From a virus, in the IMG/VR virus record IMGVR_UViG_3300044568_003751, positions 1 to 64,000 of that record: a stretch of 64,000 nt of DNA; one strand, given 5' to 3'. Position numbers and translations under genes: made by a program. This document shows, piece by piece, positions 12,837 to 57,544 of this stretch (positions are counted from its first letter, which is position 1; the number at the start of each line of letters is the position of its first letter). Below the pieces are notes generated by a model. It was not told the DNA's origin. It made no database searches and saw nothing but the letters and a program-made list of their open reading frames with translations.

Positions 12837-12840
12837 ACAA

Positions 12841-12848: not shown

Positions 12849-12855
12849 ACATATC

Positions 12856-20645: not shown

Positions 20646-21347
20646 ATGATTATTGCATTTTATCCTGGCGCAGGCGGCAATAGATACCTACAAAAGTTGT
20701 TGGGCAACGACTGGTCGCAACCACACACAAGTTATGACCAAATCAACACCAATCAACAGTATGCACATCGGTATCTGCTGGATCATGTGCCACAAACTGA
20801 ATCCCAGTACATATTAACACATTGCATGAACAGCCAAAAGATACAGCAGACATTTCCAGGACATGCTATAATGTTTATCAAAAGCCATCTTCAAATTAGT
20901 CTGCAGAGAGAATGGGCACTGCACGGACATCAACGATTTCAGGACCGAAAGATAAAGAATACAGTGTCAAGACTGGAGCACTACTGGGCTTTCCGAGCGT
21001 CCACCTGGCCCGATATTGAGCATGAAGATCAAATTGATCAATTGCCCGAGAATATTAGACAAGAAGTCCAAATTGATTATGTCAAAGTAGTCAACAGCGT
21101 CATTCATACAGTGCCCGGCAAACTAGCCCAATATACACGCAACACAATTGACAAGATCAATTCAGCATATGAAATCATTAAATGGCATCTGGATTATTAT
21201 GATCAGTATCCTGTGGACTTTGCCGGGGCCGAACAGGTTATTGATATAGATTCCGACAACAATGAGTTTGGTGCGCTGATGCAGGCAGAACTTGATCGAT
21301 ACCAAAGTGAAATATTCAATCAAGTATGGAACGCTGTCAATGAGTAA
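20646..21347 (+). CDS. P-loop-like protein, possibly sulfotransferase-related (233 aa)
   Basis: 233 residues. The N-terminus MIIAFYPGAGGNRYLQKLL has the strand-loop-helix shape of a nucleotide-binding P-loop, similar to the PAPS loop of sulfotransferases though not a canonical Walker A. HAIMFIKSH could be a second core strand, and a polar C-terminus follows (EVQIDYVKVV, VIDIDSDN). A kinase or hypothetical protein is equally possible. It is the first gene of the plus-strand tailoring run and overlaps the first radical SAM gene by 8 nt. Confidence 0.55.
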   Translation: MIIAFYPGAGGNRYLQKLLGNDWSQPHTSYDQINTNQQYAHRYLLDHVPQTESQYILTHCMNSQKIQQTFPGHAIMFIKSHLQISLQREWALHGHQRFQDRKIKNTVSRLEHYWAFRASTWPDIEHEDQIDQLPENIRQEVQIDYVKVVNSVIHTVPGKLAQYTRNTIDKINSAYEIIKWHLDYYDQYPVDFAGAEQVIDIDSDNNEFGALMQAELDRYQSEIFNQVWNAVNE

Positions 21348-22716
21348 TAAAAGTGTGTTTATGGGCTCAGCAGAGCAAATGAAAGACAAACTGGGCCCTG
21401 CATTGTGCCTGGCCAAATGGAAACAAGTATCATTACACCTGCCCACAGGACTCAACAACTCATGTTACCATCCTCCATTACACGCAATTGATCCTGTGGC
21501 CATTGCTGCCAATCCTGCGGCACTGCACAATACCGAACACAAAAAAGCACAACGACAGTTGATGCTGTCAGGTGAACGTCCTGCAGAATGCTCTTACTGC
21601 TGGAACATGGAAGATCAGGGCAAACTCAGCGACAGACACTATCGTTCAGGAGAACCTTGGGCCGCAGTGGACTTTGAACAAATAAAAAATAGTACAGGAG
21701 CCGAAGATGATATTATCCCTAGTTATGTTGAAGTTAATTTTAATCACGCTTGCAATCTCAAGTGTAGTTATTGTAGTCCTCAATTTAGTAGCAGTTGGCA
21801 CGATGAAGCCCAGAGAATGGGGCCTTATGCTACCAGTACTCCGCACAACAGCCTGGACCATTTTACCGGGAATAGGCGCATTATTCCTGCCCGAGAGCAT
21901 AACCCTTATGTAGAAGCATTTTGGGCATGGTGGCCCCGACTATATCCCACACTGGAACACTTCCGCATGACCGGTGGCGAACCGCTAATGGATCGCAATA
22001 CCTATCGAGTGTTTGACCATGTGATTGAGAACCCGTCAAAGAAACTGCATCTAAATGTCACATCAAACTTCTCAGTAGATGAAGTGTTGTTTCAAAAGTA
22101 TCTGGCCGCTGTCAAAACCATTTGTGATGGCCGCATAGAACATTTCATGCAGTATGTAAGTTTAGATGGCTGGGGTACTCAAGCAGAATACATGCGACAC
22201 GGCATGAACTTTGATCTAGTGTGGTCACGTGTGGATCAATATCTTACGCAAGTGCCCTCCTACAACAGTCTAACGTTTATTATCACAATGAACAATCTGT
22301 CTGTAAGCAGTCTGCAACAACTGCTGGAAGGCATACTAGAACTACGCCGCAAGCACAGCACCACGTATCAACGTGTGTGGTTCGATACACCTGTGCTACG
22401 TGAGCCTGTGTGGCAAAGCCTGCAGATCTTGCCTGAATCATATGCACAACGACTAGAAAGTGTGCGTGACTGGATGAGTCAACATTTAACCACCGAATCA
22501 GATCCTTACAACGGATTCAAAGACTACGAAGTGGCAAGATTAGACAGGGACATTGCTTGGATGCGCAGTGCCCAGACACAAGATCATAGCCTGGCACGTG
22601 CAGACTTTTATCGTTTCTTTAGTGAACACGACCAACGCAGAGGCACTGATTTTTTGCAGACTTTTCCAGAAATGAAATCATGGTGGACTGAATGTGAGTA
22701 CCACACTAGATCATGA
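21340..22716 (+). CDS. Radical SAM protein with N-terminal Cys segment (rSAM A, 458 aa)
   Basis: 458 residues from the ATG at 21340. The 4Fe-4S/SAM motif CX3CX2C is CNLKCSYC at about residue 136, and MTGGEPLMD is the SAM-binding GGEP motif. N-terminal Cys/His residues (AKWKQVSLHLPTG...CYHPPLH, AECSYCWNMED) resemble the half-barrel (twitch) segment of the family NCBI calls twitch domain-containing radical SAM; that fold could hold an auxiliary Fe-S cluster. The family occurs in phages and their hosts, and substrates are unknown to me. It overlaps the next gene by ATGA. Closest sibling here is the gene at 23768. Confidence 0.85.
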   Translation: MSNKSVFMGSAEQMKDKLGPALCLAKWKQVSLHLPTGLNNSCYHPPLHAIDPVAIAANPAALHNTEHKKAQRQLMLSGERPAECSYCWNMEDQGKLSDRHYRSGEPWAAVDFEQIKNSTGAEDDIIPSYVEVNFNHACNLKCSYCSPQFSSSWHDEAQRMGPYATSTPHNSLDHFTGNRRIIPAREHNPYVEAFWAWWPRLYPTLEHFRMTGGEPLMDRNTYRVFDHVIENPSKKLHLNVTSNFSVDEVLFQKYLAAVKTICDGRIEHFMQYVSLDGWGTQAEYMRHGMNFDLVWSRVDQYLTQVPSYNSLTFIITMNNLSVSSLQQLLEGILELRRKHSTTYQRVWFDTPVLREPVWQSLQILPESYAQRLESVRDWMSQHLTTESDPYNGFKDYEVARLDRDIAWMRSAQTQDHSLARADFYRFFSEHDQRRGTDFLQTFPEMKSWWTECEYHTRS

Positions 22717-23771
22717 AGTTGTATGTGGATCATTACTGTGAGATTGCTGACATGTTGGCACATTGGACAACAGAACAATTCTATGGGTTTGAACAGTTAA
22801 CAATTGACCCAGGCGCCACCTACGTTGTGGGTCGCATACAACTCAAAAACAATGCAGAACAAATTCGACGCATAGTAACCGAGCGCACAGCCAAAGTGAT
22901 CTTTTCGAACCCTGCTGAAGGGTCAGAAACATTTGTACAGCACCTGCGCCTGTATGGTGTAGAAGATCTAGTATTAGACGGACTGCTACCTGTTGTGGTG
23001 GGCGGCCCAGTACCGGATGCGTACCCACACATGCTGTATGAACATTTTTTGACACAGCCATTTAGATACCAAGAAAATTGTGCGGCTGCAGATCGTGTGA
23101 GTGAGGTGTTTGCTAAAAAACACAAGCCCTACCGGTTCCTTTTCTTGAATGGCCGTTCGAGACCGCATCGCCGTGCATTGATTAATGCCTTTGAACAGCG
23201 CGGATTGTTGGCACAAGCATTATGGACAAATCTAGACTCACATGCAGGCCCTGTTCATTTGTTACCCCCAGAATACGAAGTAGAACAATTTCAACCGCAC
23301 ATGAACACCACTCAGCAGGGTTTTGTCAAAGCAGAGTTGTTTAATAATTTATGGGGCGAAATATACATTCGATCGGAACCCTATATTGACACTTACTTTT
23401 CAGTAGTGACAGAAACAGTATTTGATTATGCCCACAGTTTCAGAACAGAAAAGATAGCCAAGCCCTTGTGTCAAGGGCATCCGTGGATTGCCGCTGCCAA
23501 CGCAGGCTTTTACAGAGACATGCACAATCTGGGATTCCAGACTTTTGGGCACGTGATAGACGAATCATTTGATTCTATAGACAATGCTCAAGATAGGATC
23601 AATCGCATTGTGACCATAGTGGATGACCTTTGTGGCCAAGATCTGCTACAATTACTAGCGGCATGTGAAAGTGTTTGTAAATACAATCAACAACATCTAC
23701 GCACCGTGAGTCAAAAGTGGCAACGGGAATTGCCCTCTCGATTTTTTGACTTTTTATCCCAGCACCCATGA
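22713..23771 (+). CDS. Putative GT-B-like glycosyltransferase (352 aa)
   Basis: 352 residues between two radical SAM genes, overlapping both by 4 nt. FLFLNGRSRPHRRALI occupies the middle, and the C-terminal part has FSVVTETVFD, RTEKIAKPLCQGHPWIAA and FGHVIDESFDSI. The E-K-x-x-K-P plus 'TFGHVIDESFD' pattern is shared with the minus-strand proteins at 34107 and 35254, so the three form one family here. The layout resembles exostosin/GT-B enzymes, where the E...K region binds the nucleotide-sugar. Donor unknown. Confidence 0.6.
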   Translation: MKLYVDHYCEIADMLAHWTTEQFYGFEQLTIDPGATYVVGRIQLKNNAEQIRRIVTERTAKVIFSNPAEGSETFVQHLRLYGVEDLVLDGLLPVVVGGPVPDAYPHMLYEHFLTQPFRYQENCAAADRVSEVFAKKHKPYRFLFLNGRSRPHRRALINAFEQRGLLAQALWTNLDSHAGPVHLLPPEYEVEQFQPHMNTTQQGFVKAELFNNLWGEIYIRSEPYIDTYFSVVTETVFDYAHSFRTEKIAKPLCQGHPWIAAANAGFYRDMHNLGFQTFGHVIDESFDSIDNAQDRINRIVTIVDDLCGQDLLQLLAACESVCKYNQQHLRTVSQKWQRELPSRFFDFLSQHP

Positions 23772-25105
23772 ATGATCTAGAATTTAAACACACAGTATTA
23801 GACCGACTCTCAGCCAGTTTCTGTGCGGCAAAATGGTATAACGCAACCATTTGGTTAGGAAGTGGGCAGACCACAAGTTGCCATCACCCGCCAGCCCATT
23901 TGGTGGACCCGGATCGAGTCCGCGCCAACCCTAGGCTGTTGCACAATACTGATCAAAAGAAAAAGGATCGTCTACAGATGATCCTTGGGGAGCGTCCCCC
24001 TGGCTGCGAGTACTGTTGGAAAATAGAAGACATGGGTCGGGACGCTATTAGTGACCGTGTGTACAAATCGAAGATATATCCTATAGAGGCGCTAGATGAA
24101 GCATTTAATACTGCACCCGATCGAGATGTCAATCTCCGTACCTTGGAAATTGCTTTTGATCGTACTTGTCAATTTGCTTGTTCTTACTGCAACCCTGCTT
24201 TTAGCACAACTTGGGTTAGTGATATTCGACGTAACGGACCCTATCAAGATCTTGTTAGTGACGGGCGCAATCACTTTACCCACACCCATGATAGTGCTCA
24301 ATTGTTTAAGATCACAGAGAGTAATCCCTACGTTGATGCATTTTTTGCATGGTGGGAAACAGATCTACATCGTACCCTTACAGAACTTAGAATCACAGGA
24401 GGAGAGCCCCTTATGTCCGCCCACACCTGGCGGCTCATTGACTGGTTTCGAGAGCACACGGGCAAGAGTACTACACGCTTGGCTATCAATAGTAACCTGG
24501 GCACCGACGTTGACATTGACCGACTGCTTGCCAGCACCAAGGGAATGTCAATCGACCTATACACCAGCAATGAAGCCGTTTCCGTTCAAGCCGAGTACAT
24601 CCGTGATGGGCTTGTATGGGACGACTGGGCTAACAATGTAGAACGCCTGTTGGACTCTGGGCAGTTCCGTGGCATACATGTGATGTGTACCATTAACGCT
24701 CTTTGTTTGAGCACACTGGATCAATTGCTGGAATGCATAATGAATTGGAAAATTAAATACGGACGTGACGCCATATCATTTACATTAAATATCCTACGCT
24801 TTCCTAGTTTTCAGTCGCCTTTGGTTTTACCTGAGGCCCAGCGCACAGTATACAGACAAAGTCTAGTCACATGGCTGGCGCACTGGGCTGATAGTGAATT
24901 CATTCACGAGCATGAAGTAAATCACACACAGCGTCTAATAGATTACTTGGATGTGGTAAAAACTCCCCATTCAGAAGCATTTGATCGACCTAAGTTATTG
25001 AACGATTTTAAACAGTTCTACACACAGTATGATCAACGTAGATCAAAAGACTTTGGTCTAGCGTTCCCTGAACTAAAAGAATGGTATGACTCAATACAAG
25101 TATAA
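23768..25105 (+). CDS. Radical SAM protein (rSAM B, 445 aa)
   Basis: 445 residues; cluster motif CQFACSYC at about residue 133, GGEP motif RITGGEPLMS, and the N-terminal block AKWYNATIWLGSG...SCHHPP with CEYCWKIED. It is clearly paralogous to rSAM A (same N-terminal Cys layout and the same ending, DQRRSKDFGLAFPELKEW). The start overlaps the previous stop as ATGA; the end overlaps rSAM C by 20 nt. Reaction unknown; as a radical SAM enzyme it should generate a 5'-deoxyadenosyl radical. Confidence 0.85.
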   Translation: MNDLEFKHTVLDRLSASFCAAKWYNATIWLGSGQTTSCHHPPAHLVDPDRVRANPRLLHNTDQKKKDRLQMILGERPPGCEYCWKIEDMGRDAISDRVYKSKIYPIEALDEAFNTAPDRDVNLRTLEIAFDRTCQFACSYCNPAFSTTWVSDIRRNGPYQDLVSDGRNHFTHTHDSAQLFKITESNPYVDAFFAWWETDLHRTLTELRITGGEPLMSAHTWRLIDWFREHTGKSTTRLAINSNLGTDVDIDRLLASTKGMSIDLYTSNEAVSVQAEYIRDGLVWDDWANNVERLLDSGQFRGIHVMCTINALCLSTLDQLLECIMNWKIKYGRDAISFTLNILRFPSFQSPLVLPEAQRTVYRQSLVTWLAHWADSEFIHEHEVNHTQRLIDYLDVVKTPHSEAFDRPKLLNDFKQFYTQYDQRRSKDFGLAFPELKEWYDSIQV

Positions 25106-26348
25106 TAGCACAGATCTAGTACGCCCAACAGAATTAACTGAGCGTGAGCGTTTCCTATTAGAAGATTCTAAAACATTCTGTATATACCCATGGATCCATT
25201 TACACGCTTATCCTACAGGCGAAGCATATCCCTGTTGCCATGCTGAAATGAAACCAGGTGTTGTGGGCAACTGTAGAACCAATACGCTTGAAGAAATATG
25301 GACAGGCAAACCCATGAAGCAACTACGTGATAGTATGTTGAGTGAAACGCCACATGCGGCTTGCATACGCTGTTATGAACAAGAACAGTCGGGATTCTTT
25401 TCGGGACGTAAATCGGCTAACAAACACCACGGGCATCACATAAAAAAACTGGAAACAAACCCATTTGAAATGACCTACTGGGATATTCGTTTTAGTAACT
25501 TGTGTAACTTGAAATGTAGATCTTGCGGGCATATCTTTAGTTCGCAATGGTATCAGGACCAGGCAAAACTAGCAGGACCAGAATGGAAGGATCGCAATAG
25601 TGTGCTAAACTATGCAGGTCGTACAGAAACAGACATGTGGACACAATTAGAGCCCCATTTGGACTATGTGGAACAGATTTACTTTGCAGGTGGTGAGCCA
25701 TTGTTAATGGAAGAACACTACCGCATTCTGGAAGAACTGGTAAAACGCAAACGTTTTGATGTACGACTAATCTACAACACCAACTTCACGCACACAGACC
25801 TTAAAGGCCGGAGCGTATTTGAGTATTGGCGACAGTTTAACAGTGTAGCAGTGGGTGCCAGCCTAGATGGTATGGGACACCCTGCTGAATATATTAGAAA
25901 AGGCACCCGATGGTATGACGTTGTTCAGAATCGTCATAGAATGATTGCAACATGCCCCGACGTGGACTTTTATATCAGCCCCACACTCAGCATAATGAAT
26001 GCTTGGCACCTGCCAGACTTTCACAAGGAGTGGGTCTCTGCTGGATTAATTCGCGCACAGGATTTAAATGTAAATATACTGCAAGATCCTGCACACTATC
26101 GTATAGACATTGCTCCTGCAGAATATAAACAACGCCTGGAAGAAAAGTATTTGAAACACCTATCCTGGATGAGCGACAGAGATCCGCTACAACGTGCCAC
26201 ACAAGGGTTCCGGAGCGCCATTGCCTTTATGAACGCAACAGATAATACCCAACTAATAGATACATTCTGGCGCAAGACACATGAATTAGATGATATTAGA
26301 AATGAATCGTGGTCACATGCATTACCAGAATTGGCCGCATTAAAATGA
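25086..26348 (+). CDS. Twitch-type radical SAM protein (rSAM C, 420 aa)
   Basis: 420 residues. The N-terminal segment FCIYPWIHLHAYPTG...PCCHAEM, then ACIRCYEQE, is the hallmark of the twitch-type family; CNLKCRSC at about residue 139 is the SAM-cluster motif; YFAGGEPLLM is the GGEP motif. It ends in a helical segment similar to rSAM D. Overlaps: 20 nt with rSAM B and ATGA with rSAM D, so translation is coupled. Substrate unknown. Confidence 0.85.
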   Translation: MTQYKYNSTDLVRPTELTERERFLLEDSKTFCIYPWIHLHAYPTGEAYPCCHAEMKPGVVGNCRTNTLEEIWTGKPMKQLRDSMLSETPHAACIRCYEQEQSGFFSGRKSANKHHGHHIKKLETNPFEMTYWDIRFSNLCNLKCRSCGHIFSSQWYQDQAKLAGPEWKDRNSVLNYAGRTETDMWTQLEPHLDYVEQIYFAGGEPLLMEEHYRILEELVKRKRFDVRLIYNTNFTHTDLKGRSVFEYWRQFNSVAVGASLDGMGHPAEYIRKGTRWYDVVQNRHRMIATCPDVDFYISPTLSIMNAWHLPDFHKEWVSAGLIRAQDLNVNILQDPAHYRIDIAPAEYKQRLEEKYLKHLSWMSDRDPLQRATQGFRSAIAFMNATDNTQLIDTFWRKTHELDDIRNESWSHALPELAALK

Positions 26349-27562
26349 ATTTACCACAAGACAAATTTTGCGTGTTGCCCTGGATCAGCCTAGAAGCCTC
26401 ACCTGTAGGAACTGTGCGTCCATGTTGCTTGGCCGATGACGAGATACTAGATGATGCAGGCCGCAAGTTTGAATTAAGTACGGCTAACTTTCGAGACATA
26501 CAAAACTCCGATCACATGCGTCAACTACGCCAACAGTTCTTGGACAGCGAACAGCCACAAACATGCCGTAAATGCTGGTCAGAAGAACGTGCTGGTCGTA
26601 CTAGCAAACGTATGCACACACTAGACAGACTCAAGCACATGGGCATCGGGTCAGAATTCACAGCAGATGCCAAGCCACTCATGTTCTTGGATCTCAAACT
26701 GGGCAATATATGTAATCTTAAATGTCGCATATGCGGGTCATGGTCATCAAGTCAATTTGCCGCAGAAGATATTGCACAACTACCCCGGGACGAACAGAAA
26801 AAGTCACACGCTTACACAATGCTACGGGCCGGTGCATGGCCCAGAGAAAATGATCAATTCTGGTCGGAAATAGACAATCATTTAAATGACATACGCTATA
26901 TAGAATTCACCGGCGGTGAACCATTCTTGATTGACGAGCATTTTGATATGCTACAGGGCATGGTGGATCGTGGTATTGCTGATCAAGTTGAAATTCATTA
27001 CAACACCAATGGCACACAATATCCCCAACGTGGGGAACAGATTTGGCGTCATTTCCGCAAGGTAGAAATTGCATTCTCTATAGATGACACAGGTGAGCGT
27101 TTTGAATATCAGCGTTCAAATGCTGAGTGGAAGCTGGTATGTGAGAACATGGATCGTTTCCGTGACTTGAAAGAAATACACGCTAATATTCATTTGCAAA
27201 TCTGCACCACAGTAAATGTGTTTAACATTCGCTACATAGATCAATTGGCTGTGTGGCTGGACCGCAATACCAACAGCTTTGAATTTGTGTATTGGAATGT
27301 CATGCATGACGCTTGGTATTTCTCCGTTGCTACCCTGCCTGACACGGCCAAACTAGCACTGACCCAACATTTGTCAACAGCAGCCATTCCCCCGCGTTGG
27401 CAAGGGGAGTTTGCTAGGATTGTGGACTTTATGAATGGCGGCGCAAGCACAGATGGATTTATGTTACGCATGAAAATACAGGATCTAGATCTCAAAAGAA
27501 ATACTGACTTCGCAATTAGTTGTCCTGAAATGGCTGAATTAATTGAATACAGCAGGTGTTAG
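26345..27562 (+). CDS. Twitch-type radical SAM protein (rSAM D, 405 aa)
   Basis: 405 residues from the ATG in the ATGA overlap. The N-terminus FCVLPWISLEASPVG...RPCCLADD and CRKCWSEE supply candidate auxiliary-cluster cysteines; CNLKCRIC at about residue 122 is the SAM cluster; FTGGEPFLI follows. The DDTGERFEYQR segment is shared with rSAM F at 47.4 kb, marking C/D/F as one subgroup. It is followed after 56 nt by the epimerase gene. Substrate unknown. Confidence 0.85.
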   Translation: MNLPQDKFCVLPWISLEASPVGTVRPCCLADDEILDDAGRKFELSTANFRDIQNSDHMRQLRQQFLDSEQPQTCRKCWSEERAGRTSKRMHTLDRLKHMGIGSEFTADAKPLMFLDLKLGNICNLKCRICGSWSSSQFAAEDIAQLPRDEQKKSHAYTMLRAGAWPRENDQFWSEIDNHLNDIRYIEFTGGEPFLIDEHFDMLQGMVDRGIADQVEIHYNTNGTQYPQRGEQIWRHFRKVEIAFSIDDTGERFEYQRSNAEWKLVCENMDRFRDLKEIHANIHLQICTTVNVFNIRYIDQLAVWLDRNTNSFEFVYWNVMHDAWYFSVATLPDTAKLALTQHLSTAAIPPRWQGEFARIVDFMNGGASTDGFMLRMKIQDLDLKRNTDFAISCPEMAELIEYSRC

Positions 27563-27618
27563 ATTAATTTTCGATCCCGATGATCACAAAATTGCTACAT
27601 ATAGAAGGAAAGATTTCA

Positions 27619-30884: not shown

Positions 30885-30982
30885 AATGGATTCGCAGACT
30901 TTGGGATAGAATTACGCTAGAATATCGTTATCGTAAAAAATTAAAAGAACTACGCAAACGAGATCCTTTTATCTACAAATGA
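30881..30982 (+). CDS. Small basic protein (33 aa)
   Basis: 33 residues, MKWIRRLWDRI... ending RKRDPFIYK, with about 12 Lys/Arg. Linked by ATGA overlaps to the genes on both sides, which argues that it is translated. Short basic proteins with the ending RDPFIY occur in aquatic phages and bacteria as far as I recall; function unknown. Confidence 0.7.
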   Translation: MKWIRRLWDRITLEYRYRKKLKELRKRDPFIYK

Positions 30983-32457: not shown

Positions 32458-33086
32458 TGGATTACAAAAAATTTAAATCATTTGAAAAAAGAGCACTGGA
32501 CACAGTGTACACTGAAGTTCCTGGAGGATTTCATGATGATATTATTCCAGAGATAACTCAAAGATTTTTACTTGAATTCAATCTAGACCCACAATGCAAA
32601 ATTCTTGATATTGGGTGTGGTCCGGGAATTTTTATAAAGTCGGCCCAGTCCATGGGATACAACAACGTGACTGGAGTAACACTAAGCACACAAGATGTTG
32701 ATGCATGTATTTCACAAGGATTTGATGTGATACATGCCAGCATGACTGATTTGCCCATTGAGGATGCCAGTGTTGATTTTATATGGTGTAGGCACGCACT
32801 AGAACACAGTCCGTATCCATTGTTCACCTTGTTTGAATTTCATCGTGTGTTAAAACCCGATGGGCAAGTGTTTATTGAAGTTCCTGCTCCGGGCAACGAA
32901 CGTGTATACATTCATGAGTTCAACCCTAATCATTACAGCATTTTAGGTGATCGAATGTGGCAAGGATTGTTTAACAAAGCCAATTTTGAATTGGTCCAGG
33001 ATTGGGTGTATGATATCAATTTGTCGTTAGCGCACAAGATTGTCAACGAAAAATCTTATATGTTTGCACTTAGATCCAAGGGTTAA
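32457..33086 (+). CDS. Class I SAM-dependent methyltransferase (209 aa)
   Basis: 209 residues; TAATG junction with the carbamoyltransferase. Motif I ILDIGCGPGIF at residues 49-59, motif II acidic DVIHAS, motif IV DFIWCRHALEHS, and FHRVLKPDGQVFIEVP as the conserved post-motif strand: the Methyltransf_11/UbiE-like layout. Acceptor unknown, likely a small molecule or glycan. It ends 4 nt inside the convergent amidinotransferase gene. Confidence 0.8.
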   Translation: MDYKKFKSFEKRALDTVYTEVPGGFHDDIIPEITQRFLLEFNLDPQCKILDIGCGPGIFIKSAQSMGYNNVTGVTLSTQDVDACISQGFDVIHASMTDLPIEDASVDFIWCRHALEHSPYPLFTLFEFHRVLKPDGQVFIEVPAPGNERVYIHEFNPNHYSILGDRMWQGLFNKANFELVQDWVYDINLSLAHKIVNEKSYMFALRSKG

Positions 33087-34120: not shown

Positions 34121-35294
34121 CAATGTGCTCGAGTAGGATATTTAAGCGAGCAGTCTTGGTCTCAAGAAATAACTGCTGGTTGTGTTCTATGTCTTGTCGG
34201 ACCGTGTCGAATCTATCGGCCAAGCGATGCTGTGATTCTTTAATGGCCGCACAAAGACGCACCCAACGTTCAGTATTGTCTTTGATGCGATCATATGTGT
34301 TATCTAACACCTGGTCAAACACACGATATCCTTGATCTCTCAACAGCTCTAGACTGCCAGCACAGCCAGCAATAAAGAATAGTTGACCATGTTTGATTGG
34401 TTTGAAAGTTTTTTCTGTCAAGAACGCACCACCCGATTGATCAGCGTCCCAGTGCGTTTCAAGCACAATGTTACAATAGCTGTCCATATAATACTTGGGC
34501 ACAATCATGCTGTGGTTGTTGCGGTCACTATCAGATAACTCATCATTCACATAAGGAGTTTGAGATAGAAACAGTTGTGTTGATTCGCGTAGATTTTTTA
34601 TGCTGTCAATCTCAATGGGGCTATCAGCAAAATCCACAGGCTCAGTTACAGTTTCACAATAGCTCCAGTAACTGTTGTCCAGCAGTTTATTTTGCTGCAG
34701 GTTGGCCATGGCCATTGCTCGCCAGGGTTTGTGTAAACGCACAAGAGCAGTGAAGTCTCGGGAGCGAGACCGGTCATGTATTTCCAACGGAGCAACGTTG
34801 TGATTGCGTTGGTAATACCAAAGTTCAAAGTCATTGAAATAAACAAAACCAGGAATGTCACGTGCGGCAGTGTTGGCACTGACAAACACATAGCATTTCG
34901 GGGGCAACTGATGTTGTTTGACCAACGCATCTAGTCTTTGTTTCATGCGCTCAGGATTATCTCCTTCATGGTAATAAAACAATATGCGTATGTGACTGTG
35001 CCCGAGCTCGGTAAACACACGCTCGGGCAACAGTTCAAAGTAGTCTATACCAAAGTCAAAGAAACCTAGACCAATAGGATACACAGCATCTGCTGGCCAT
35101 GTATCATGCAACCCAACAATGTTTAGATTGACCGCGTGGTGATCGCAATACTCTTGCAATCGTAACGGGATGGTATAAGGCCAGTGTGAACCAAACTCAC
35201 GCCAGCTCTGAGTGTATGGTCGCCCTTCATGTGGGGCAAACGCAGGATATATTTTACCCTTGACTATTCGGTCCGCTATCAGTGTCAATGCCAT
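34107..35294 (-). CDS. Putative GT-B-like glycosyltransferase (395 aa)
   Basis: 395 residues. Conserved C-terminal block EKTFKPIKHGQLFFIAG, then YRVFDQVLDNTYDRI, plus a central RLHKPWRAMAMANL. It shares this block with the proteins at 22713 and 35254 and overlaps the latter by 41 nt. The E-K-x-F-K-P segment is reminiscent of exostosin-type sugar-nucleotide binding; the N-terminal half is poorly conserved. No membrane segment. Function inferred from motif and from the epimerase, aminotransferase and other sugar genes around it. Confidence 0.6.
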   Translation of the reverse strand: MALTLIADRIVKGKIYPAFAPHEGRPYTQSWREFGSHWPYTIPLRLQEYCDHHAVNLNIVGLHDTWPADAVYPIGLGFFDFGIDYFELLPERVFTELGHSHIRILFYYHEGDNPERMKQRLDALVKQHQLPPKCYVFVSANTAARDIPGFVYFNDFELWYYQRNHNVAPLEIHDRSRSRDFTALVRLHKPWRAMAMANLQQNKLLDNSYWSYCETVTEPVDFADSPIEIDSIKNLRESTQLFLSQTPYVNDELSDSDRNNHSMIVPKYYMDSYCNIVLETHWDADQSGGAFLTEKTFKPIKHGQLFFIAGCAGSLELLRDQGYRVFDQVLDNTYDRIKDNTERWVRLCAAIKESQHRLADRFDTVRQDIEHNQQLFLETKTARLNILLEHIDESY

Positions 35295-36375
35295 TCAACA
35301 TCTCCTGTAGTTCTTGCCACAACACAGTTTCAAAGCCGCCGTTGTAAAAATGATTCCAATTGTGTTGGATTACTTCCTGTGCGGCATCAAACAGGTCTTG
35401 TTTTGCTACCGGCGACAATTCGTCTAGGCTACGCAACAGGCTAGCAATACGTGCAATGCGCACATCGTCCTCTGCTGAGTCATAGCTTTCGTCCCAGATA
35501 CCTTCAAATGTGCGGAAACCATAACTGCGCAAGTACGCAAGACTGCCTTGAGTGCCCACAACAACAAACGGCATGCCTAAGGCAATGGGTTTGAATGTTT
35601 TTTCTGTGATGTGATGTCTGCGTCCTGTGGCCACAGTCTCTGTCACTAGATACAACAAACTCTCTGCTGACTCATCAAACAGACTCAGCCAGCATGAATG
35701 CATGGGATGATCTGTTTCACCTGCAAAGTTAATGGGTAGTAATTGTTTGGCAAATACTTCTTGTATGTCAGGATATTTGGTCGCCAAAGGTTTGATGGCG
35801 TCATAGATTGAAATGTCTTCAGCAGGACACACACTCGGACAACTGATGTGATTGTCCGTGAGTTTGTTTTTGAATATGTGATACAACATTTCCAGTCTAT
35901 GTTGACGTTCGCCTGCAATAATGCGATTGGGCGCAATAAAAGTCTTTGTTATCTTACGCTCATCAGGCGGAGTAATCAAAAAGGTCTTATCGTATCCTCG
36001 ATACCAATCTAGTGCTGCCCAGCCGTGAAAGAAGTAATAATAACTTTTCCATCCATACTTGGCGCATAGAGTATCTACATTGTCGCTATCACGCTCACTG
36101 GTACATATAGCACCAATCGGAGGACGTTTATTTTGTAGATCTGCATTGTTTGCTCTAACATGCTCAAATGTTTCGGTGTGTATGTTCAAATGAATAGGCT
36201 CCTGGTCGAAAAAGAATATATAATTGTGTTCGTGCATGTTTTCTCTACCATACCCAATAACACTGTCAGGATCACTGCGCCCAAAAGGATCGCACATCAA
36301 TGCACGTACACCGGGACGATGTTGGCGCAACCAAGGCCAAAAAGTATTGTTGTAAATTTCATCTATTCTAATCAT
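35254..36375 (-). CDS. Putative GT-B-like glycosyltransferase (373 aa)
   Basis: 373 residues. MIRIDEIYNNTFWPW..., FFDQEPIHL and FIAPNRIIAGERQHRLEML in the N-terminal half; EKTFKPIALGMPFVVVG and FRTFEGIWDESYDSA in the C-terminal half. It is the closest relative of the adjacent 395-residue protein (tandem duplication, then divergence). Its start codon overlaps the start codon of the divergent gene at 36374 within one CATG. Confidence 0.62.
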   Translation of the reverse strand: MIRIDEIYNNTFWPWLRQHRPGVRALMCDPFGRSDPDSVIGYGRENMHEHNYIFFFDQEPIHLNIHTETFEHVRANNADLQNKRPPIGAICTSERDSDNVDTLCAKYGWKSYYYFFHGWAALDWYRGYDKTFLITPPDERKITKTFIAPNRIIAGERQHRLEMLYHIFKNKLTDNHISCPSVCPAEDISIYDAIKPLATKYPDIQEVFAKQLLPINFAGETDHPMHSCWLSLFDESAESLLYLVTETVATGRRHHITEKTFKPIALGMPFVVVGTQGSLAYLRSYGFRTFEGIWDESYDSAEDDVRIARIASLLRSLDELSPVAKQDLFDAAQEVIQHNWNHFYNGGFETVLWQELQEMLNGIDTDSGPNSQG

Positions 36376-38173
36376 GTATGACGTATTCTATTCGGGTGTA
36401 AAACCCAATCAATTTGCACACGAGCGTGAGGCTGATTCGATTGAGCATGCGCAGACCATGAGCCGCACAAAATATTTTTGGTGGATCACATACTTATGTG
36501 ACTACTCGGAGTGGGATTGGCTTTGGCAGCCCCCACCTTGGCAAGCACATCAACGTCATGCATGGCCCAGCCAATGGCAAAAAGATTCTGGTACATATCT
36601 AGTTCCGCGGTCAGCATACGCTGACACAAATTATCATCCCACACCCAGTATTATACGTGTTCACAGCGACAGTGTCAACTGGTCAATTCCCGACAGTATT
36701 GAATCTTTTGACACCACTTGGCATCCAGATCCAACAGACCCGCCTTACATATATCAGTTTGGTACACAACATCAGCGCACTGGTGGTCCGCAATATTGTG
36801 TGCCCGGTGCTGTTGATCTAAAGTTTGTGGACCAAATGCGTGTGACAACCAGCAGAGTGGCCACTGCTGTATACGAAATTGATCACATGGATGGTAATGC
36901 GGGCAACATCGTCAACACCACTAGGCGTGTTCGTTACTTTGACAACTATCGAGACACACTCATACGCTTGGCTCGAAGCGTAGGCACTGAACATGAGTTT
37001 GTGTGGGTATGTTCCAGCATTTGTGATTATACCAATTTTGACTTTTCGTGGCATCCTGAGCAATGGCAAGCCACAATGTTACACGTATTTGCCAGCGATG
37101 GCGAGAAGTTTGGGGACACATTCTTCATGCATGTGCCCTCATTTGCTCGTCGTGCAGAACGTGCAGAATTGCTAGAATGGTATGACTGTAACTTTGTGAG
37201 TACCAGTGTGCCACGTAGACCCATGCCTGTAATAGAACACAACTACGATAGCCAAGCCCAAGCAGTTCAAGCATTGCCGTTTGATGGACCACTTGCTGTG
37301 TATACCACAACAGATTATGTGCCGGGCAACTTGGCCACAGTTCCACTATGGAGAGAGAATGTCAAAACCATTGTGCCACTCTCAACAGGTGCTACCAGTG
37401 TGATTGTGCCCAAGACAGCGGTTCCCTATATCAAAACGCAGTTGTATGATTATCCTTATATAGACCGAACGCATCGCAAAGATAAAGATCAACCCCTGGA
37501 CATTGTGTTTATTGACAATGGTGAACGTGATGCTGACAGTAATTTTACACATCTTAATAGTGTAACATACAATTTAGAAAATAGATTACATCGAAGTTCC
37601 GGCGTGACGGGTCGTGTGGCCGCATACCAAGCAGCCGCCGACATGTCTAAAACTCCTTGGTTCTTTGCTGTGTTTGCTAAACTACGAGTCAACCAACACT
37701 TTGATTGGTCCTGGCAACCTGACCGCATGCAAGCGGCCAAGCACTATATCTTTCATGCACGAAACACAATCAATGATCTTGAATACGGTCACCAAGGCAT
37801 GATTGCTTATAATCGAAAACTCACACTAGAAAACACAGGTCAGGGCCTGGACTTTACACTGGACCAGCCACACGAAGTGGTGCCTGTACTATCAGGAGAT
37901 GCCATATACTATACCTCAAACTGGGTAGCCTGGCGCACAGCATTTAGAGAATGTCTGAAGTTACGGGCCAGTTTACCTGACGTAGAAAATGAATATAGAT
38001 TAAAGCAATGGCTTGAGGTAGACCACGGTGCAGGCCGGTGGAGTTCAAAAGGTGCTCAAGATGCTGTGGAGTACTATGAAGAAGTTGGCGGCGATTTTGC
38101 AGCACTCAAGAAAAGTTATGAGTGGGCCTGGTTGGCCACTTATGCGTTGATCAAACGCAATATAGTGTCTTAG
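36374..38173 (+). CDS. Three-repeat protein of unknown function (599 aa)
   Basis: 599 residues with one domain repeated three times: KYFWWITYLCDYSEWDWLW, then EFVWVCSSICDYTNFDFSW, then PWFFAVFAKLRVNQHFDWSW. Each is followed by a Q-x-x-x-H-x-F/W segment (QAHQRHAW, QATMLHVF, QAAKHYIF). Copies are separated by 150-280 residues with acidic strands such as VFIDNGERDAD that could act as GT-A-like metal sites. The repeat is known to me only from phage hypothetical proteins. It is flanked by glycosyltransferase-like genes, so a sugar-related role is likely but unproven. Confidence 0.7.
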   Translation: MYDVFYSGVKPNQFAHEREADSIEHAQTMSRTKYFWWITYLCDYSEWDWLWQPPPWQAHQRHAWPSQWQKDSGTYLVPRSAYADTNYHPTPSIIRVHSDSVNWSIPDSIESFDTTWHPDPTDPPYIYQFGTQHQRTGGPQYCVPGAVDLKFVDQMRVTTSRVATAVYEIDHMDGNAGNIVNTTRRVRYFDNYRDTLIRLARSVGTEHEFVWVCSSICDYTNFDFSWHPEQWQATMLHVFASDGEKFGDTFFMHVPSFARRAERAELLEWYDCNFVSTSVPRRPMPVIEHNYDSQAQAVQALPFDGPLAVYTTTDYVPGNLATVPLWRENVKTIVPLSTGATSVIVPKTAVPYIKTQLYDYPYIDRTHRKDKDQPLDIVFIDNGERDADSNFTHLNSVTYNLENRLHRSSGVTGRVAAYQAAADMSKTPWFFAVFAKLRVNQHFDWSWQPDRMQAAKHYIFHARNTINDLEYGHQGMIAYNRKLTLENTGQGLDFTLDQPHEVVPVLSGDAIYYTSNWVAWRTAFRECLKLRASLPDVENEYRLKQWLEVDHGAGRWSSKGAQDAVEYYEEVGGDFAALKKSYEWAWLATYALIKRNIVS

Positions 38174-38787
38174 TATGGATATTTTATTGGATTAGTACTA
38201 CTACCTTGAGTACGCCTTATATTTACAATTGGAGATGGAATGTAATTCCAGTTTAAAATATTTGAGCCCATTAATTTGTCGGAGTGCCCTGGACCATGTG
38301 TCTTGCAAAATTCTACAAGTTTCTTTGCACCAGTCGGTGATAGCCAATAAGCAGAAGCACCTGCAGACCAAGAGCCTAATTTAGAACTTTGATGCAAAAC
38401 ATACGGGCGTGTTAGTTTTAATAAATCAAAATTAGTCTTGATTTCAATTAACTCCGCTGTAATTTCAGAGTCGTCTTCTAAAACTATAATCGGTTCATCT
38501 AAACTAATGCACCGATTCCATAAAGTAAAATGACTAAAAAAACATCCATGTGCCCCAGGTAAATTTCCAAATTTATCTAAACGTTTGGTTGATCTTTTTG
38601 GCGGTGGTAAATTGTATTCGCTCCAAATATTTTCTGGTAAGTTATACCCATTGACAGCGTTAAAAATTTCAGTTTGCCAATTAAATTCTTGACAGGATCT
38701 TATTGCATTGTTGTACCTGTGAAAAGCCGATTGTGAATGAATACCTGCATTTGAATATAGTAATGAAATAATATAAACTTTGTACAT
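38170..38787 (-). CDS. Glycosyltransferase family 25 (LPS-type) protein
   Basis: 205 residues from the ATG at 38787, which overlaps the aminotransferase stop (TAATG). MYKVYIISLLYS is the family's first strand; GAHGCFFSHFTLWNRCI and IIVLEDDSEI are the GT25 signatures; ASAYWLSPTGAKKLVEF follows. GT25 enzymes transfer galactose or other hexoses onto LPS or protein glycans. The gene is clearly more AT-rich than its neighbours, suggesting later acquisition. It is convergent with, and overlaps by 4 nt, the three-repeat gene. Confidence 0.82.
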   Translation of the reverse strand: MYKVYIISLLYSNAGIHSQSAFHRYNNAIRSCQEFNWQTEIFNAVNGYNLPENIWSEYNLPPPKRSTKRLDKFGNLPGAHGCFFSHFTLWNRCISLDEPIIVLEDDSEITAELIEIKTNFDLLKLTRPYVLHQSSKLGSWSAGASAYWLSPTGAKKLVEFCKTHGPGHSDKLMGSNILNWNYIPSPIVNIRRTQGSSTNPIKYPY

Positions 38788-39857
38788 TATACGATCTCTA
38801 ACAACTGATCCATGATGTATTCTACTTCTAAGTCTGTTAATTCGGGGTAGATAGGCAGACTTAGACAACGTCTACTGAGTGAGCTGGCAGCACTCAACAT
38901 GTCGGGCCCTTGGTAGTGTTGGTATGCAGGAAGTTCGTGCAAAGGATGCTCGTAGTGAACTCTTGTGTCAATACCTGCCTTTAAGAGCCTGGCTCGAACT
39001 TGATCGCGGTCGTCTATGTCAATAACAAATTTGTGGAAGCAATGAGTATCAAAGTTTGTTTCGTTGATCAAACAACGCACAGGACTATCCTTGAATGCAT
39101 CTATCCACTGTCTAGCAATGTACCTACGGCGTGCTTGCCAGTCGTTTATGTACTTTGTTTTGACTAACATTTGAGCACAGTCAACTTCACTCATACGTGA
39201 GTTTGTACCTACTTCGGCATGCCCGGTGTTCTTGCCATTGTTGACCCAACCACGAGCGTAATTCAACAACTCGTAGTCATCTGTAACAACGGCACCACCA
39301 TTGCCATAGTTGCCCAAGTTTTTCATGGGATCAAAACTAATTGCAGAAGCCATACCATGACGATACCTGCTACCAGCTAGCCAATGTTGTGCAGCATCTT
39401 CGATTAACGATCCTTGCCTGTGCATCCAGTCCGGTAATGCAGCACCGTATAATCCTATGCCAAGTATGCCCTGGATTGATACCTCCTGGTCGATCTTGCT
39501 GTAATCCATGATACCATATGCATCTGTGTCAACAAAATGTATATTCCAACCTGCACGAATAAAAGCATTGGCACTGGCCGGAAATGTCATGGACGGAACA
39601 AGTACAGTGGGAGGATGTATTCCTAGTCTTTGACGAACAAAGCTGGCAATAATTTCTAGTGCTTGTGTGCCTGAATGACAAGTAACAGCATGCTTGATAT
39701 GATTTTCATAGGCCAACCATGACTCAAAGTTAGCAGTGTTTTCTGCATTCATGAGACGACCAGATGTTAGGACTTGATCCGTAACGTCCAGTATCTCTTT
39801 GCGTAGATTGTTATACTGTCTTTGAAGACCAGTAAACTGAATTAGAGAGCCATTCAT
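38787..39857 (-). CDS. DegT/DnrJ/EryC1/StrS-family PLP aminotransferase
   Basis: 356 residues; the ATG at 39857 is preceded by GAAGGATT, whereas the earlier in-frame start at 39881 has no such site. CHSGTQALEI is the substrate/PLP phosphate region, LIEDAAQHW the PLP-stacking motif, SFDPMKNLGNYGNGGAVV carries the Schiff-base Lys. These enzymes aminate NDP-keto-sugars or keto-cyclitols. It overlaps the upstream epimerase gene by 47 nt and is followed by GT25, together a compact amino-sugar cassette. Confidence 0.85.
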   Translation of the reverse strand: MNGSLIQFTGLQRQYNNLRKEILDVTDQVLTSGRLMNAENTANFESWLAYENHIKHAVTCHSGTQALEIIASFVRQRLGIHPPTVLVPSMTFPASANAFIRAGWNIHFVDTDAYGIMDYSKIDQEVSIQGILGIGLYGAALPDWMHRQGSLIEDAAQHWLAGSRYRHGMASAISFDPMKNLGNYGNGGAVVTDDYELLNYARGWVNNGKNTGHAEVGTNSRMSEVDCAQMLVKTKYINDWQARRRYIARQWIDAFKDSPVRCLINETNFDTHCFHKFVIDIDDRDQVRARLLKAGIDTRVHYEHPLHELPAYQHYQGPDMLSAASSLSRRCLSLPIYPELTDLEVEYIMDQLLEIV

Positions 39858-40782
39858 AGTATTTTTGGAATCCTTCTTCAACGTCTACTTTGGGATCAAA
39901 GCCAAGTATGGTTCTTGCACGATCGATATTTAACGCACCGCGACTTGGGAAGTCTGCGTCTTTGTCACGTGTTTCAATTGTGCCTCGGCCCACAATCTTC
40001 ACAATCATTTCTGCGGCTTCTAGCAAACTTACCGAGTGTGATTTGGTAATGTTGAATGTTTTATTGGCACTCATGATACGTGTAGCCGCCGCAACAACGC
40101 CATCCGCGGCGTCATCCACATAGGTAAAGTCTAACGTCTCCCCTGCACCATTAACATTGAGCACGCCTCCTCGCATGGCTGTGAGCATAAATTTAGCCAC
40201 CACTCGGTCTTCCACGTCCAAGGGTCCGTATACAGCACTAGGGCGAATAATAGCGTAGTCAAAGCAACCACGACGATGATAGTCTTTAACAAGGTCTTCT
40301 CCTGCAAGTTTCATAATTCCATATTGTCCAATTGGACGGCATGGGTCATCTTCTAGCACCTGGTCTTCAAAGTCTCCATACACCATGCTACTAGATATGT
40401 ACACAACACGTTCGACTCGGTGTTTTTTGGCACTCTCGCAAACGTTGATCAATCCCTCCATCATGACTCTAGCACCCCATGCAGGGTTGGCATTCACAAC
40501 TTTTTGTCGAGGAAAGCTGGCCATGTGTATGATTACTTCTGGCCGGTGATTCTCTACCACACGATCAAACGCTTCGGCATCAGAGATATCAGTGCGATAT
40601 ATGTGCTGTGTTTTAATCTTCTTACGTCTCTCATCCAACAAGTACTCTAGTTCGTCTTGCGGAATAATACCATAGTTGGTCATAATGTCCACAATCACAA
40701 CTTCGTGTTCTTTTGCTTCTAATCGTTCGACTACATTGTGTCCAATCAGACCCATGCCCCCGGTTACTAAAAATTTACTCAT
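39811..40782 (-). CDS. NAD-dependent NDP-sugar epimerase/dehydratase
   Basis: 323 residues. GGMGLIG Rossmann motif at the N-terminus, HMASFPRQ, YISSSMVYGD with the catalytic Ser, YGIMK with the catalytic Tyr-x3-Lys, and LDFTYVDDAADGVV: the extended SDR (GalE/RmlB-like) pattern. Exact reaction cannot be told from sequence. It sits first in the epimerase, aminotransferase, GT25 series; its start overlaps the stop of the upstream phage gene by 4 nt. Confidence 0.83.
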   Translation of the reverse strand: MSKFLVTGGMGLIGHNVVERLEAKEHEVVIVDIMTNYGIIPQDELEYLLDERRKKIKTQHIYRTDISDAEAFDRVVENHRPEVIIHMASFPRQKVVNANPAWGARVMMEGLINVCESAKKHRVERVVYISSSMVYGDFEDQVLEDDPCRPIGQYGIMKLAGEDLVKDYHRRGCFDYAIIRPSAVYGPLDVEDRVVAKFMLTAMRGGVLNVNGAGETLDFTYVDDAADGVVAAATRIMSANKTFNITKSHSVSLLEAAEMIVKIVGRGTIETRDKDADFPSRGALNIDRARTILGFDPKVDVEEGFQKYYEWLSNSVYWSSKTV

Positions 40783-41105
40783 TTATTATTTTCCCATTTG
40801 AGTCGCCAAAAAGTTTCGTTTTGTTCGCTGAGTCTGGCCACAATACGATACATGTGTCCATAACTATGTGGGTCCATGCTACGAGTCCAGTAAGGTTTGT
40901 CCACAGCATTTTCCATTATGAATCGGCCAGCATCTGATTCTTGCCATTTGTATATGGGTTCTGCTACAAATAAGTCCGGATCTTCTACATCGCCCATGCG
41001 TATCTCGTGTACACATACATCACGAAAGCGCACTGCCTTATCGCCGATAATTTTGACTTGTTCAGGTTGCCAGTGGTCTGGTTGTTCCGTGTGTGTTATT
41101 GCCAT
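40779..41105 (-). CDS. Conserved phage protein, probably leaderless mRNA (108 aa)
   Basis: 108 residues. Motifs VCVHEIRMGDVEDPDLFVAE and YKWQESDAGRFIMENA, then YWTRSMDPHSYGH. I recognise it as a T4-like cyanophage hypothetical protein. The ATG lies only 5 nt from a TATACT -10 box, with no room for a ribosome-binding site, so the transcript should start at or next to the ATG. First gene of the minus-strand sugar cassette. Function unknown. Confidence 0.78.
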   Translation of the reverse strand: MAITHTEQPDHWQPEQVKIIGDKAVRFRDVCVHEIRMGDVEDPDLFVAEPIYKWQESDAGRFIMENAVDKPYWTRSMDPHSYGHMYRIVARLSEQNETFWRLKWENNK

Positions 41106-56085: not shown

Positions 56086-56088
56086 AAC

Positions 56089-57538: not shown

Positions 57539-57544
57539 ATTTGA

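What the first reader, a model, noticed from the sequence alone, without database searches (positions are those of the whole stretch)
20646..41105. A 20-kb phage tailoring region with radical SAM, sugar, amidino- and carbamoyl-transfer enzymes
The sequence shows five radical SAM proteins, a GDP-mannose 3,5-epimerase-like enzyme, NodU/CmcH-type carbamoyltransferase, methyltransferase, amidinotransferase with its catalytic Cys, a second epimerase, a DegT aminotransferase, GT25 and three further glycosyltransferase-like proteins. Known pathways that combine amidino-, carbamoyl-, amino- and methyl-transfer on sugars or cyclitols are aminoglycoside-type pathways. Inference: the phage makes an elaborately decorated sugar for virion or host-surface glycans, or a small molecule. 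I know of no phage pathway with this set.
Basis: partly seen in the sequence, partly recalled or inferred. Interest (0 to 1): 0.85.

Follow-up and report, generated by a model that had tools for sequence, protein, structure and literature searches.

The report
Phage sugar-decorating radical-SAM gene cluster
Many uncultured relatives of phage T4 carry, right behind their virion-fibre genes, the same set of five different radical-SAM enzymes together with sugar-attaching and sugar-modifying enzymes, probably to build an unusual sugar coat on the virus particle or on the host surface.

Summary
All five radical SAM proteins belong to the N-terminal-twitch family NF033640. Residues tested in the carbamoyltransferase, amidinotransferase, DegT and SDR enzymes are conserved, and the genes tested evolve under purifying selection.

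The order fibre, three GT-like genes, rSAM array (mostly five), NodU carbamoyltransferase, then sugar genes recurs in a second phage group: x, y, z, rSAM and NodU in 41 of 41 full-length loci. A tree gives five separate orthologous rSAM groups shared by both phage groups. The amidinotransferase belongs to the cassette only in the window's clade (0 of 63 loci of the second group within the fetched stretch), so the aminoglycoside analogy is not the core.

The clade is T4-like; closest named relatives are jumbo phages. The position fits the published 'host recognition cluster' of pelagimyophages; Campylobacter phages CP220/CPt10 have an analogous module of five rSAMs plus an amidinotransferase.

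Best reading: a dedicated glycan-tailoring module, more likely aimed at the virion's own fibres than at host glycans. Chemistry and target are not shown. New variant of a known kind.

The parts
63..12836 (+). giant protein (4257 aa or more, open at the window edge), upstream anchor, probably virion structural
   Evidence: in Phosso and Atu_ph07 the same place holds a 13-kb 'virion structural protein' next to a baseplate wedge gene; not itself compared by sequence
13002..13607 (+). u: small conserved gene next to the fibre gene
   Evidence: phrog_11259; homologues beside the v homologue in PA5oct, Phosso, Atu_ph07
13629..15698 (+). v: fibre-like virion protein, candidate acceptor
   Evidence: homologue in 41 of 42 records of the window's clade; PA5oct homologue annotated virion structural, ESI-MS/MS
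15711..16730 (+). w: Thr/Ala/Gly-rich protein, conserved next to v in the second phage group
   Evidence: 39 of 41 full loci; composition
17038..17901 (+). x: GT-like protein, homologous to y
   Evidence: hhalign 97.9% to y; 41 of 41 full loci of the second group
17888..18673 (+). y: GT-like protein (GT8-like, weak)
   Evidence: phrog_1903, unknown function; best PDB match glycogenin, E 0.33, not significant; 39 of 42 records of the window's clade
18982..19905 (+). z: GT-A-like protein with invariant DGD
   Evidence: hhalign 99.3% to the C-terminal domain of the 599-aa protein; 13 of 13 rows
19880..20590 (-). SGNH/GDSL hydrolase-like protein
   Evidence: Pfam GDSL 2.2e-4, below the curated cut-off
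20646..21347 (+). a: 233-aa protein of unknown function
   Evidence: no family; 0 of 80 loci, though many loci do not reach this far
21292..22716 (+). twitch radical SAM 1
   Evidence: NF033640 321 bits; orthologue in 39 of 42 records; group R1
22713..23771 (+). c: GT-like protein related to m and n
23768..25105 (+). twitch radical SAM 2
   Evidence: group R2
25086..26348 (+). twitch radical SAM 3, SPASM-like domain at its N end
   Evidence: group R3
26309..27562 (+). twitch radical SAM 4 (R5 of the second group), SPASM-like domain at its N end
27580..28578 (+). g: SDR epimerase/dehydratase, optional
   Evidence: Pfam 6e-43; close copy (72-75%) in 5 of 80 loci
28550..29854 (+). twitch radical SAM 5 (R4 of the second group)
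   Evidence: 68 of 80 loci
29847..30884 (+). i: 345-aa protein of unknown function
   Evidence: 68 of 80 loci; model pLDDT 85.5; fold searches
30979..32457 (+). j: NodU/TobZ-type O-carbamoyltransferase
   Evidence: 79 of 80 loci; 41 of 41 full loci of the second group
32448..33086 (+). k: SAM-dependent methyltransferase, optional
   Evidence: Pfam 2e-20; 4 of 80 loci
33083..34123 (-). l: amidinotransferase of the AGAT/StrB1 kind, in the cassette of the window's clade
   Evidence: in 0 of 63 fetched stretches of the second group
34107..35294 (-). m: GT-like protein
   Evidence: 79 of 80 loci
35254..36375 (-). n: GT-like protein
   Evidence: 80 of 80 loci
36374..38173 (+). o: multi-domain protein with C-terminal GT-A-like fold (about 370-514)
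   Evidence: 70 of 80 loci, 40 of 41 full loci of the second group
38170..38868 (-). p: GT25 glycosyltransferase, optional
   Evidence: Pfam 1.4e-15; 1 weak hit in 80 loci
38787..39881 (-). q: DegT-type PLP sugar aminotransferase
   Evidence: Pfam 1.6e-56; Lys187 in 53 of 53
39811..40782 (-). r: SDR (NDP-sugar dehydratase/epimerase-like)
   Evidence: Pfam 3.4e-43; YxxxK in 59 of 59

Best explanation
The locus (about 17.0-40.8 kb of the window) is a dedicated glycan-tailoring module in the host-recognition part of a T4-like phage. Inferred course: the SDR and the DegT aminotransferase make an NDP-amino sugar; soluble glycosyltransferases build a short glycan; five non-redundant twitch radical SAM enzymes do C-H chemistry (oxidation, epimerisation or deoxygenation) on its sugars; the NodU enzyme puts a carbamoyl group on a hydroxyl; in the window's clade the amidinotransferase moves an amidino group from arginine to an amine and, in a few phages, a methyltransferase adds a methyl group. 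The acceptor is most likely the phage's own fibre or tail proteins encoded just upstream (v, w), so that the particle carries a decorated glycan that tunes or shields receptor binding. Shown: gene content, order, conservation, conserved active-site residues, purifying selection on the genes tested, linkage to the fibre gene, no membrane segment in the module. Inferred: every substrate, the order of steps, and the acceptor.
For: Order v-w-x-y-z-rSAM array-carbamoyltransferase-sugar genes in the second phage group: x, y, z, rSAM and j in 41 of 41 full-length loci, o in 40, v, w and r in 39, q in 35; 53 of all 63 have exactly five rSAMs. v and l lie 14-25 kb apart on opposite strands in 39 of 39 records of the window's clade where both were placed. 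Five rSAM orthologue groups, support 99-100, shared by both phage groups. Catalytic residues conserved; dN/dS 0.06-0.22. o has a GT-A-like domain (Z 11.8, 135 residues, rmsd 2.8 to B4GALNT1), z matches that domain, x matches y. Highest 19-residue hydropathy in the cassette 1.53. Outside phages, a Bacteroidetes locus with polysaccharide-export-type genes has a twitch rSAM directly followed by a NodU carbamoyltransferase, with GT-like genes and a relative of g (L122). The PA5oct v homologue is a virion protein by mass spectrometry (annotation). An A-type Fe-S carrier occurs in 11 of 19 relatives, in all 8 records of at least 220 kb, some of them near-duplicates.
Against: No product, substrate or glycoprotein is known; gene position is the only link to the virion. 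Authors describing such clusters favoured change of the host O-chain or outer polysaccharide (PMC7029224, passages; PMC7824862, passages). The GT calls for x, y, c, m and n rest on mutual similarity and motifs; no profile or structure match is significant. The Foldseek matches of o have low TM-scores (0.12-0.37; model pLDDT 77.5, pTM 0.57). Twitch/SPASM rSAMs also act on peptides (recalled). The own record lacks the Fe-S carrier, though it is an 89-kb piece. PA5oct has the v homologue but no annotated rSAM after it. Contig counts are not independent; near-identical contigs were not collapsed.
Confidence: 0.42

Rival explanations
1. Same enzymes, other target: the module alters the host's surface glycan (O-chain or capsule) during infection, blocking rival phages or masking receptors on debris.
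For: Published inference for pelagimyophage and jumbo cyanophage clusters (PMC7029224 passages; PMC7824862 passages). In a bacterium the rSAM-NodU pair sits in a locus with polysaccharide-export-type genes (L122). In cyanophage S-SCSM2R an amidinotransferase lies next to KdsA/KdsB and near GTs.
Against: No flippase, polymerase or lipid-carrier transferase among 20 ORFs and no membrane segment. The published host recognition cluster is described as hypervariable, whereas this core keeps its order in two phage groups and stays linked to the fibre gene v.
Confidence: 0.28
2. The radical SAM enzymes modify the fibre polypeptide itself, RiPP-like, and the GTs then glycosylate it.
For: In cultured jumbo phages Atu_ph07 and Phosso the place downstream of v also holds rSAM clusters (three, and four or five), with a roughly 300-aa protein of conserved, Cys/His-rich C-terminus reminiscent of RiPP precursors. 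SPASM-like domains at the N end of rSAM 3 and 4.
Against: Those rSAMs share little beyond the radical SAM core with the twitch family. I recognised no precursor-like ORF in the window (by eye only). DegT, SDR, carbamoyltransferase and GT-like genes co-occur with the twitch array, which points to sugars.
Confidence: 0.13
3. The product is a free small molecule of aminocyclitol or amino-sugar type made during infection.
For: Guanidino plus carbamoyl groups on one scaffold occur in bluensomycin and saxitoxin (recalled). A secondary-metabolite reading was offered for a cyanophage cluster with carbamoyltransferases (PMC7824862 passages).
Against: Many GT-like proteins and linkage to the fibre gene; no cyclitol-forming enzyme among 20 ORFs; amidinotransferase not in the shared core.
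Confidence: 0.08
4. The enzymes hypermodify phage DNA (sugar on a modified base).
For: ThyX is next door; elsewhere the phage encodes a QueE-like rSAM and, by reading the sequence, QueD- and FolE-like proteins, a 7-deazaguanine route.
Against: The conserved neighbour of the array is a fibre gene. I noticed no base hydroxymethylase or DNA glucosyltransferase, but did not search the whole record for one.
Confidence: 0.04

Closest known systems
Host recognition cluster of pelagimyophages (PMC7029224, passages read)
   Same: T4-like phages; region with tail fibres, glycosyltransferases and radical SAM cassettes next to the VrlC baseplate-region gene
   Different: described as a large nonsyntenic, hypervariable island; here one core with five orthologous twitch rSAMs, NodU and GT-like genes keeps its order; 'carbamoyltransferase' does not occur in that text
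Campylobacter phage CP220/CPt10 module (PMC2853527, passages read; annotation)
   Same: five rSAMs plus a putative amidinotransferase; two genes noted as nucleotide-diphospho-sugar transferases; near baseplate-type genes
   Different: rSAMs do not match the twitch HMM at E 1e-3 (0.055 at best); 'carbamoyl' does not occur in that text; amidinotransferase only 26% identical
rSAM clusters downstream of the v homologue in Agrobacterium phage Atu_ph07 and Sinorhizobium phage Phosso
   Same: same place: giant virion protein, u, v, then rSAM genes
   Different: other rSAM subfamilies, cupin and Cys/His-tailed protein; no carbamoyltransferase or amidinotransferase matched by the cassette HMMs in the stretches fetched
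Marine virus AG-345-D19 and kin
   Same: twitch rSAM next to NodU carbamoyltransferase, amidinotransferase near by
   Different: one rSAM seen, SGNH hydrolases between; contigs too short for the rest
Carbamoyltransferase clusters of cyanophages (PMC7824862, passages)
   Same: phage cluster with carbamoyltransferases proposed for sugar or metabolite decoration; relatives of j occur in 138 of 50,697 named phage records, mostly cyanophages
   Different: 'radical SAM' and 'amidinotransferase' do not occur in that text; 0 of 138 are over 60% identical to j

Membership tests
NF033640 twitch domain-containing radical SAM | score above curated cut-off 170 bits | tested here: met
   321.3, 279.5, 392.7, 324, 285.5 bits
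NF033640 twitch domain-containing radical SAM | CxxxCxxC cluster motif | tested here: met
   113 of 113 tree rows; relatives of all five
NF033640 twitch domain-containing radical SAM | auxiliary Fe-S cluster bound by the N-terminal domain | not testable with these tools
   N-terminal Cys invariant in the 7 rows of A5; needs spectroscopy or a structure
NodU/TobZ O-carbamoyltransferase | both Pfam domains and metal-site His residues (site recalled) | tested here: met
   His107 and His111 in 70 of 70
AGAT/StrB1 amidinotransferase | Asp-His-Cys catalytic triad (numbering recalled) | tested here: met
   81 of 81; 22 of 22 including CP220 and the paralogue
AGAT/StrB1 amidinotransferase | arginine as donor, known acceptor | not testable with these tools
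   acceptor unknown
Aminoglycoside/aminocyclitol pathway | cyclitol-forming enzyme (inositol or 2-deoxy-scyllo-inosose type) in the cluster | tested here: not met
   none of 20 ORFs matched one in Pfam at E 0.001
O-antigen/capsule assembly cluster | membrane flippase, polymerase or lipid-carrier transferase | tested here: not met
   no such Pfam hit among 20 ORFs; highest 19-residue hydropathy 1.53
Host recognition cluster of T4-like phages | next to giant baseplate-region protein and tail fibres | tested here: met
   giant ORF, u and v upstream; same order in Phosso and Atu_ph07 beside baseplate wedge genes; the giant ORF was not compared with VrlC
Host recognition cluster of T4-like phages | ends at neck gene gp14 | not tested
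   gp14 was not looked for
T4-like phage | Gp23-type major capsid protein | tested here: inconclusive
   19 of 42 records of the window's clade and 4 of 13 of the second group, mostly fragments; not searched in the window's own 89-kb record

The most novel reading that the evidence does not exclude
A widespread lineage of T4-like phages carries its own route to a radical-SAM-rewritten, carbamoylated and (in the window's clade) guanidinylated glycan that is attached to virion fibre proteins: a new kind of post-translational modification of a virus particle, with five conserved radical SAM steps supplied by the phage.
Probability: 0.3. Interest if true: 0.87.

Novelty: new variant of a known kind. 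Interest (0 to 1): 0.62.

Why it matters
If the reading holds, these phages run a multi-step radical SAM sugar pathway inside the infected cell, with its product tied to host recognition. That would give a concrete enzyme set for virion glycosylation, a source of new sugar-modifying radical SAM enzymes with in-order genomic context, and a reason why large phages carry Fe-S carrier genes. The longer-known but unexplained rSAM/amidinotransferase module of Campylobacter phages would gain a testable explanation.

Tried and rejected
Nucleotide search of the 20-kb region in named phages: no match. Protein searches in 50,697 named phage records: l 3 weak records, rSAM 3 two, its relative in L106 three, j 138; i, o and n none at E 0.01; y of L106 none at 1e-3. 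A search with the CP220 amidinotransferase gave 2 viral loci, one with the AG-345-D19 enzyme 6, of which L105 showed no cassette gene.

GT identity of c/m/n by solved-structure profile: no hit at E 1; of z: only unrelated weak hits. Fold of i: no Foldseek PDB hit below E 0.3; VIA-align best Z 8.8 over 138 residues, the other top rows mostly cyclophilins, near that tool's usual best for models without a match. Nine viral structures match i (E up to 1.6e-6), all uncharacterised; one is a 300-aa Atu_ph07 protein. FDI40_gp166 in that phage's rSAM cluster is also 300 aa, but neither hhalign nor a profile search of the whole record (without positive control) linked it to i, so I do not claim it.

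Late-promoter test: TATAAATA occurs once in the window, just before v (13603; chance 2.05 in 64 kb), but never on the + strand of 67 loci of the second group, so it does not support co-regulation. Aminoglycoside pathway: rejected as a label, see membership test. An early idea that the amidinotransferase defines the system was dropped. The tree warns of long branches; it was not rebuilt without them. Habitat: the words lake and sea are not used for the two phage groups because no call gives the sampling sites; only MAG titles of the mis-binned contigs (Pelagibacter and others) hint at a marine second group.

Literature: ten searches in the open-licence PMC library; I found no description of the conserved five-rSAM core in those listings or in what I read: PMC5332604 (passages and one section whole) and passages of PMC2853527, PMC7824862, PMC7029224 and PMC10611076. 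Subscription papers and preprints were not searched.


Full report
What is there. The window is bases 1-64000 of an 89,311-base IMG/VR virus record. All five radical SAM proteins score above the cut-off of NF033640, the family with a twitch domain at the N end. The amidinotransferase gives no Pfam or NCBIfam hit but matches AGAT, StrB1, HsvA and SxtG by sequence. Its Asp, His and Cys (the catalytic triad by recalled AGAT numbering) are invariant in 81 of 81 sequences.

The window's clade. The amidinotransferase search gave 139 viral relatives, of which the best 80 were kept (80-96% identity). In these 80 loci, many of them truncated, tblastn hits at E 1e-6 were: n 80, j 79, m 79, o 70, h 68, i 68, q 61, r 61, s 58, thyX 56, close copies of g 5, k 4, p 1 weak, a 0. 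Hits can include paralogues. Gene order is conserved in the 13 loci drawn out. In 42 longer records, rSAM 1 has an orthologue (66-92%) in 39, GT-like y in 39 and v a homologue in 41. The same three records lack y and the rSAM 1 orthologue; in each, l lies 1.5-11 kb from the contig end on the side where they would follow. v and l lie 14.3-25.4 kb apart (median 18.3) on opposite strands in 39 of 39 records where both could be placed; the three others were left out. dN/dS against three relatives is 0.06-0.22 for l, j, i, h, f, n, m, o, q and r; two pairs (one of m, the only one of e) had saturated dS, and b and d were not tested.

A second phage group changes the picture. A twitch-rSAM search of genome contigs returned 78 loci from a capped list. 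Six of them (L106, L107, L108, L110, L170, L181), binned as various bacteria, carry v-w-x-y-z in front of twitch rSAMs and look like phage contigs. I also set aside L109 (several twitch rSAMs on a 7.7-kb contig), leaving 71 bacterial loci. With one rSAM of L106 as query, 63 viral loci were found. Of the 41 longer than 21 kb, x, y, z, twitch rSAM and the carbamoyltransferase are in 41, o in 40, v, w and r in 39, q in 35. 53 of all 63 have exactly five rSAMs (7 have four, 2 three, 1 six), and none has the amidinotransferase in the fetched stretch. Beyond it, a distant amidinotransferase occurs in 8 of 13 records of this group that were searched whole; in four (G045, G048, G053, G055) it lies 9-13 kb past the edge of the stretch, so a looser link is not excluded. 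All 10 records of the window's clade in the same search have the cassette copy and 7 have extra paralogues. The shared core is therefore fibre, three GT-like genes, five rSAMs, carbamoyltransferase, SDR, DegT and o. The amidinotransferase, i and, but for single hits, m and n were found in the cassette only in the window's clade.

Five enzymes, not five copies. In a tree of 113 rSAMs (15 loci of the second group, the window, nine loci of its clade) the rows fall into five groups of 16, 22, 25, 25 and 25, each with support 99-100. The last two swap order: window f and h correspond to R5 and R4 of the second group, except in L242, which has the window's order. One ORF of L083 was counted under two names. 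All 113 carry CxxxCxxC. Keeping five old paralogues apart in both groups is best explained by five different reactions; this is inference.

Glycosyltransferases. The model of o (mean pLDDT 77.5, pTM 0.57) matches GT-A enzymes: Foldseek best E 1.9e-4 to chondroitin polymerase, with low TM-scores; VIA-align Z 11.8 over 135 residues, rmsd 2.8, to B4GALNT1, most rows covering 370-514. z matches that part of o by profile (99.3%) and has an invariant DGD in 13 of 13 rows. x and y match each other (97.9%); y's best, not significant, solved match is glycogenin. c, m and n share sixteen invariant columns across 27 rows, but no profile names them. Hydropathy shows no membrane segment in any of them.

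Where it sits. The closest named relatives of a gp23 from the window's clade (L087, not the window's own record) are T4-like jumbo phages such as Vibrio phage 2.275.O, MIJ3 and PA5oct (about 66%; 12 of 2487 rows seen). The v homologue in PA5oct is annotated as a virion protein seen by mass spectrometry and has no annotated rSAM in the 12 kb after it. In the cultured phages Phosso and Atu_ph07 the order giant virion protein, u, v is followed by rSAM clusters of other subfamilies. CP220 has five rSAMs and an amidinotransferase close to baseplate-type genes. Pelagimyophage authors place GTs and rSAM cassettes in a host recognition cluster between VrlC and gp14. So rSAM arrays recur beside baseplate and fibre genes in several T4-like lineages.

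Sugar or peptide? Of 71 bacterial twitch-rSAM loci, six carry a NodU-type carbamoyltransferase and one an amidinotransferase (no background rate was measured). In L122 the rSAM and the carbamoyltransferase are adjacent inside a locus with ABC-transporter-type, GT-like and sugar-dehydrogenase-like genes (reading of the sequences). With DegT and SDR in the phage core this favours sugars. The peptide alternative stays open because of the Phosso/Atu_ph07 clusters.

Fe-S supply. An A-type Fe-S carrier is present in 11 of 19 relatives tested, including all eight records of at least 220 kb, some of which look like near-duplicates, and not in the window's own 89-kb record. A 2017 study noted T4-like genomes with such carriers and, in one, 12 rSAM genes (PMC5332604, section 14 read).

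Verdict. A real, conserved gene module under selection; a new variant of the host-recognition and surface-glycan clusters known from T4-like phages. Substrates, order of reactions and acceptor are inference. On rechecking I softened the claim about the amidinotransferase's distribution; the odds did not need to change.

Noticed in passing
L002:3642-4535, 10003-10995, 12062-13060 (record 63641-73059): Two TctC-type and one DctP-type periplasmic solute-binding proteins in a phage genome; TctC families are enlarged in Burkholderiales (recalled), a host hint.
   Followed up: no
L002:6856-7905 and 7883-8617: A second amidinotransferase (32% identical to l) overlapping a P-loop-like gene that resembles gene a by eye.
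   Followed up: partly
L003:6265-7113, 10082-10597, 11774-12520: QueE-like, QueD-like and FolE-like proteins (by reading): a possible 7-deazaguanine DNA modification route.
   Followed up: no
L003:7229-9265: A B12-binding radical SAM protein, 678 aa, between a QueE-like and a glycosyltransferase-like gene.
   Followed up: no
L249:18679-19599 and L250:19449-20339: In Phosso and Atu_ph07 a roughly 300-aa protein with a conserved Cys/His-rich, Arg-ended C-terminus lies directly after an rSAM gene close to the v homologue; it looks like a virion-linked RiPP precursor.
   Followed up: partly
L115:6040-18036: A Bacteriovoracaceae contig with eight twitch rSAM genes within 12 kb beside housekeeping genes.
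   Followed up: partly
L166:9986-12985: A deltaproteobacterial contig with rSAM, amidinotransferase, rSAM in a row.
   Followed up: partly
L184-L246, L106, L107, L108, L110: TATAAATA is absent from the + strand of these 67 loci while six permutations occur 35-105 times each, as if this T4-type late-promoter word were avoided.
   Followed up: no
window 29847-30884: Protein i has a fairly confident predicted fold with nine uncharacterised viral matches and no clear solved relative.
   Followed up: partly
window 56012-63132: 24 tRNA genes.
   Followed up: no
window 43050-43994; L002:1278-2408 and 8886-10001: Three proteins with a PP-loop-like SGG[TI]DS motif (by reading).
   Followed up: no
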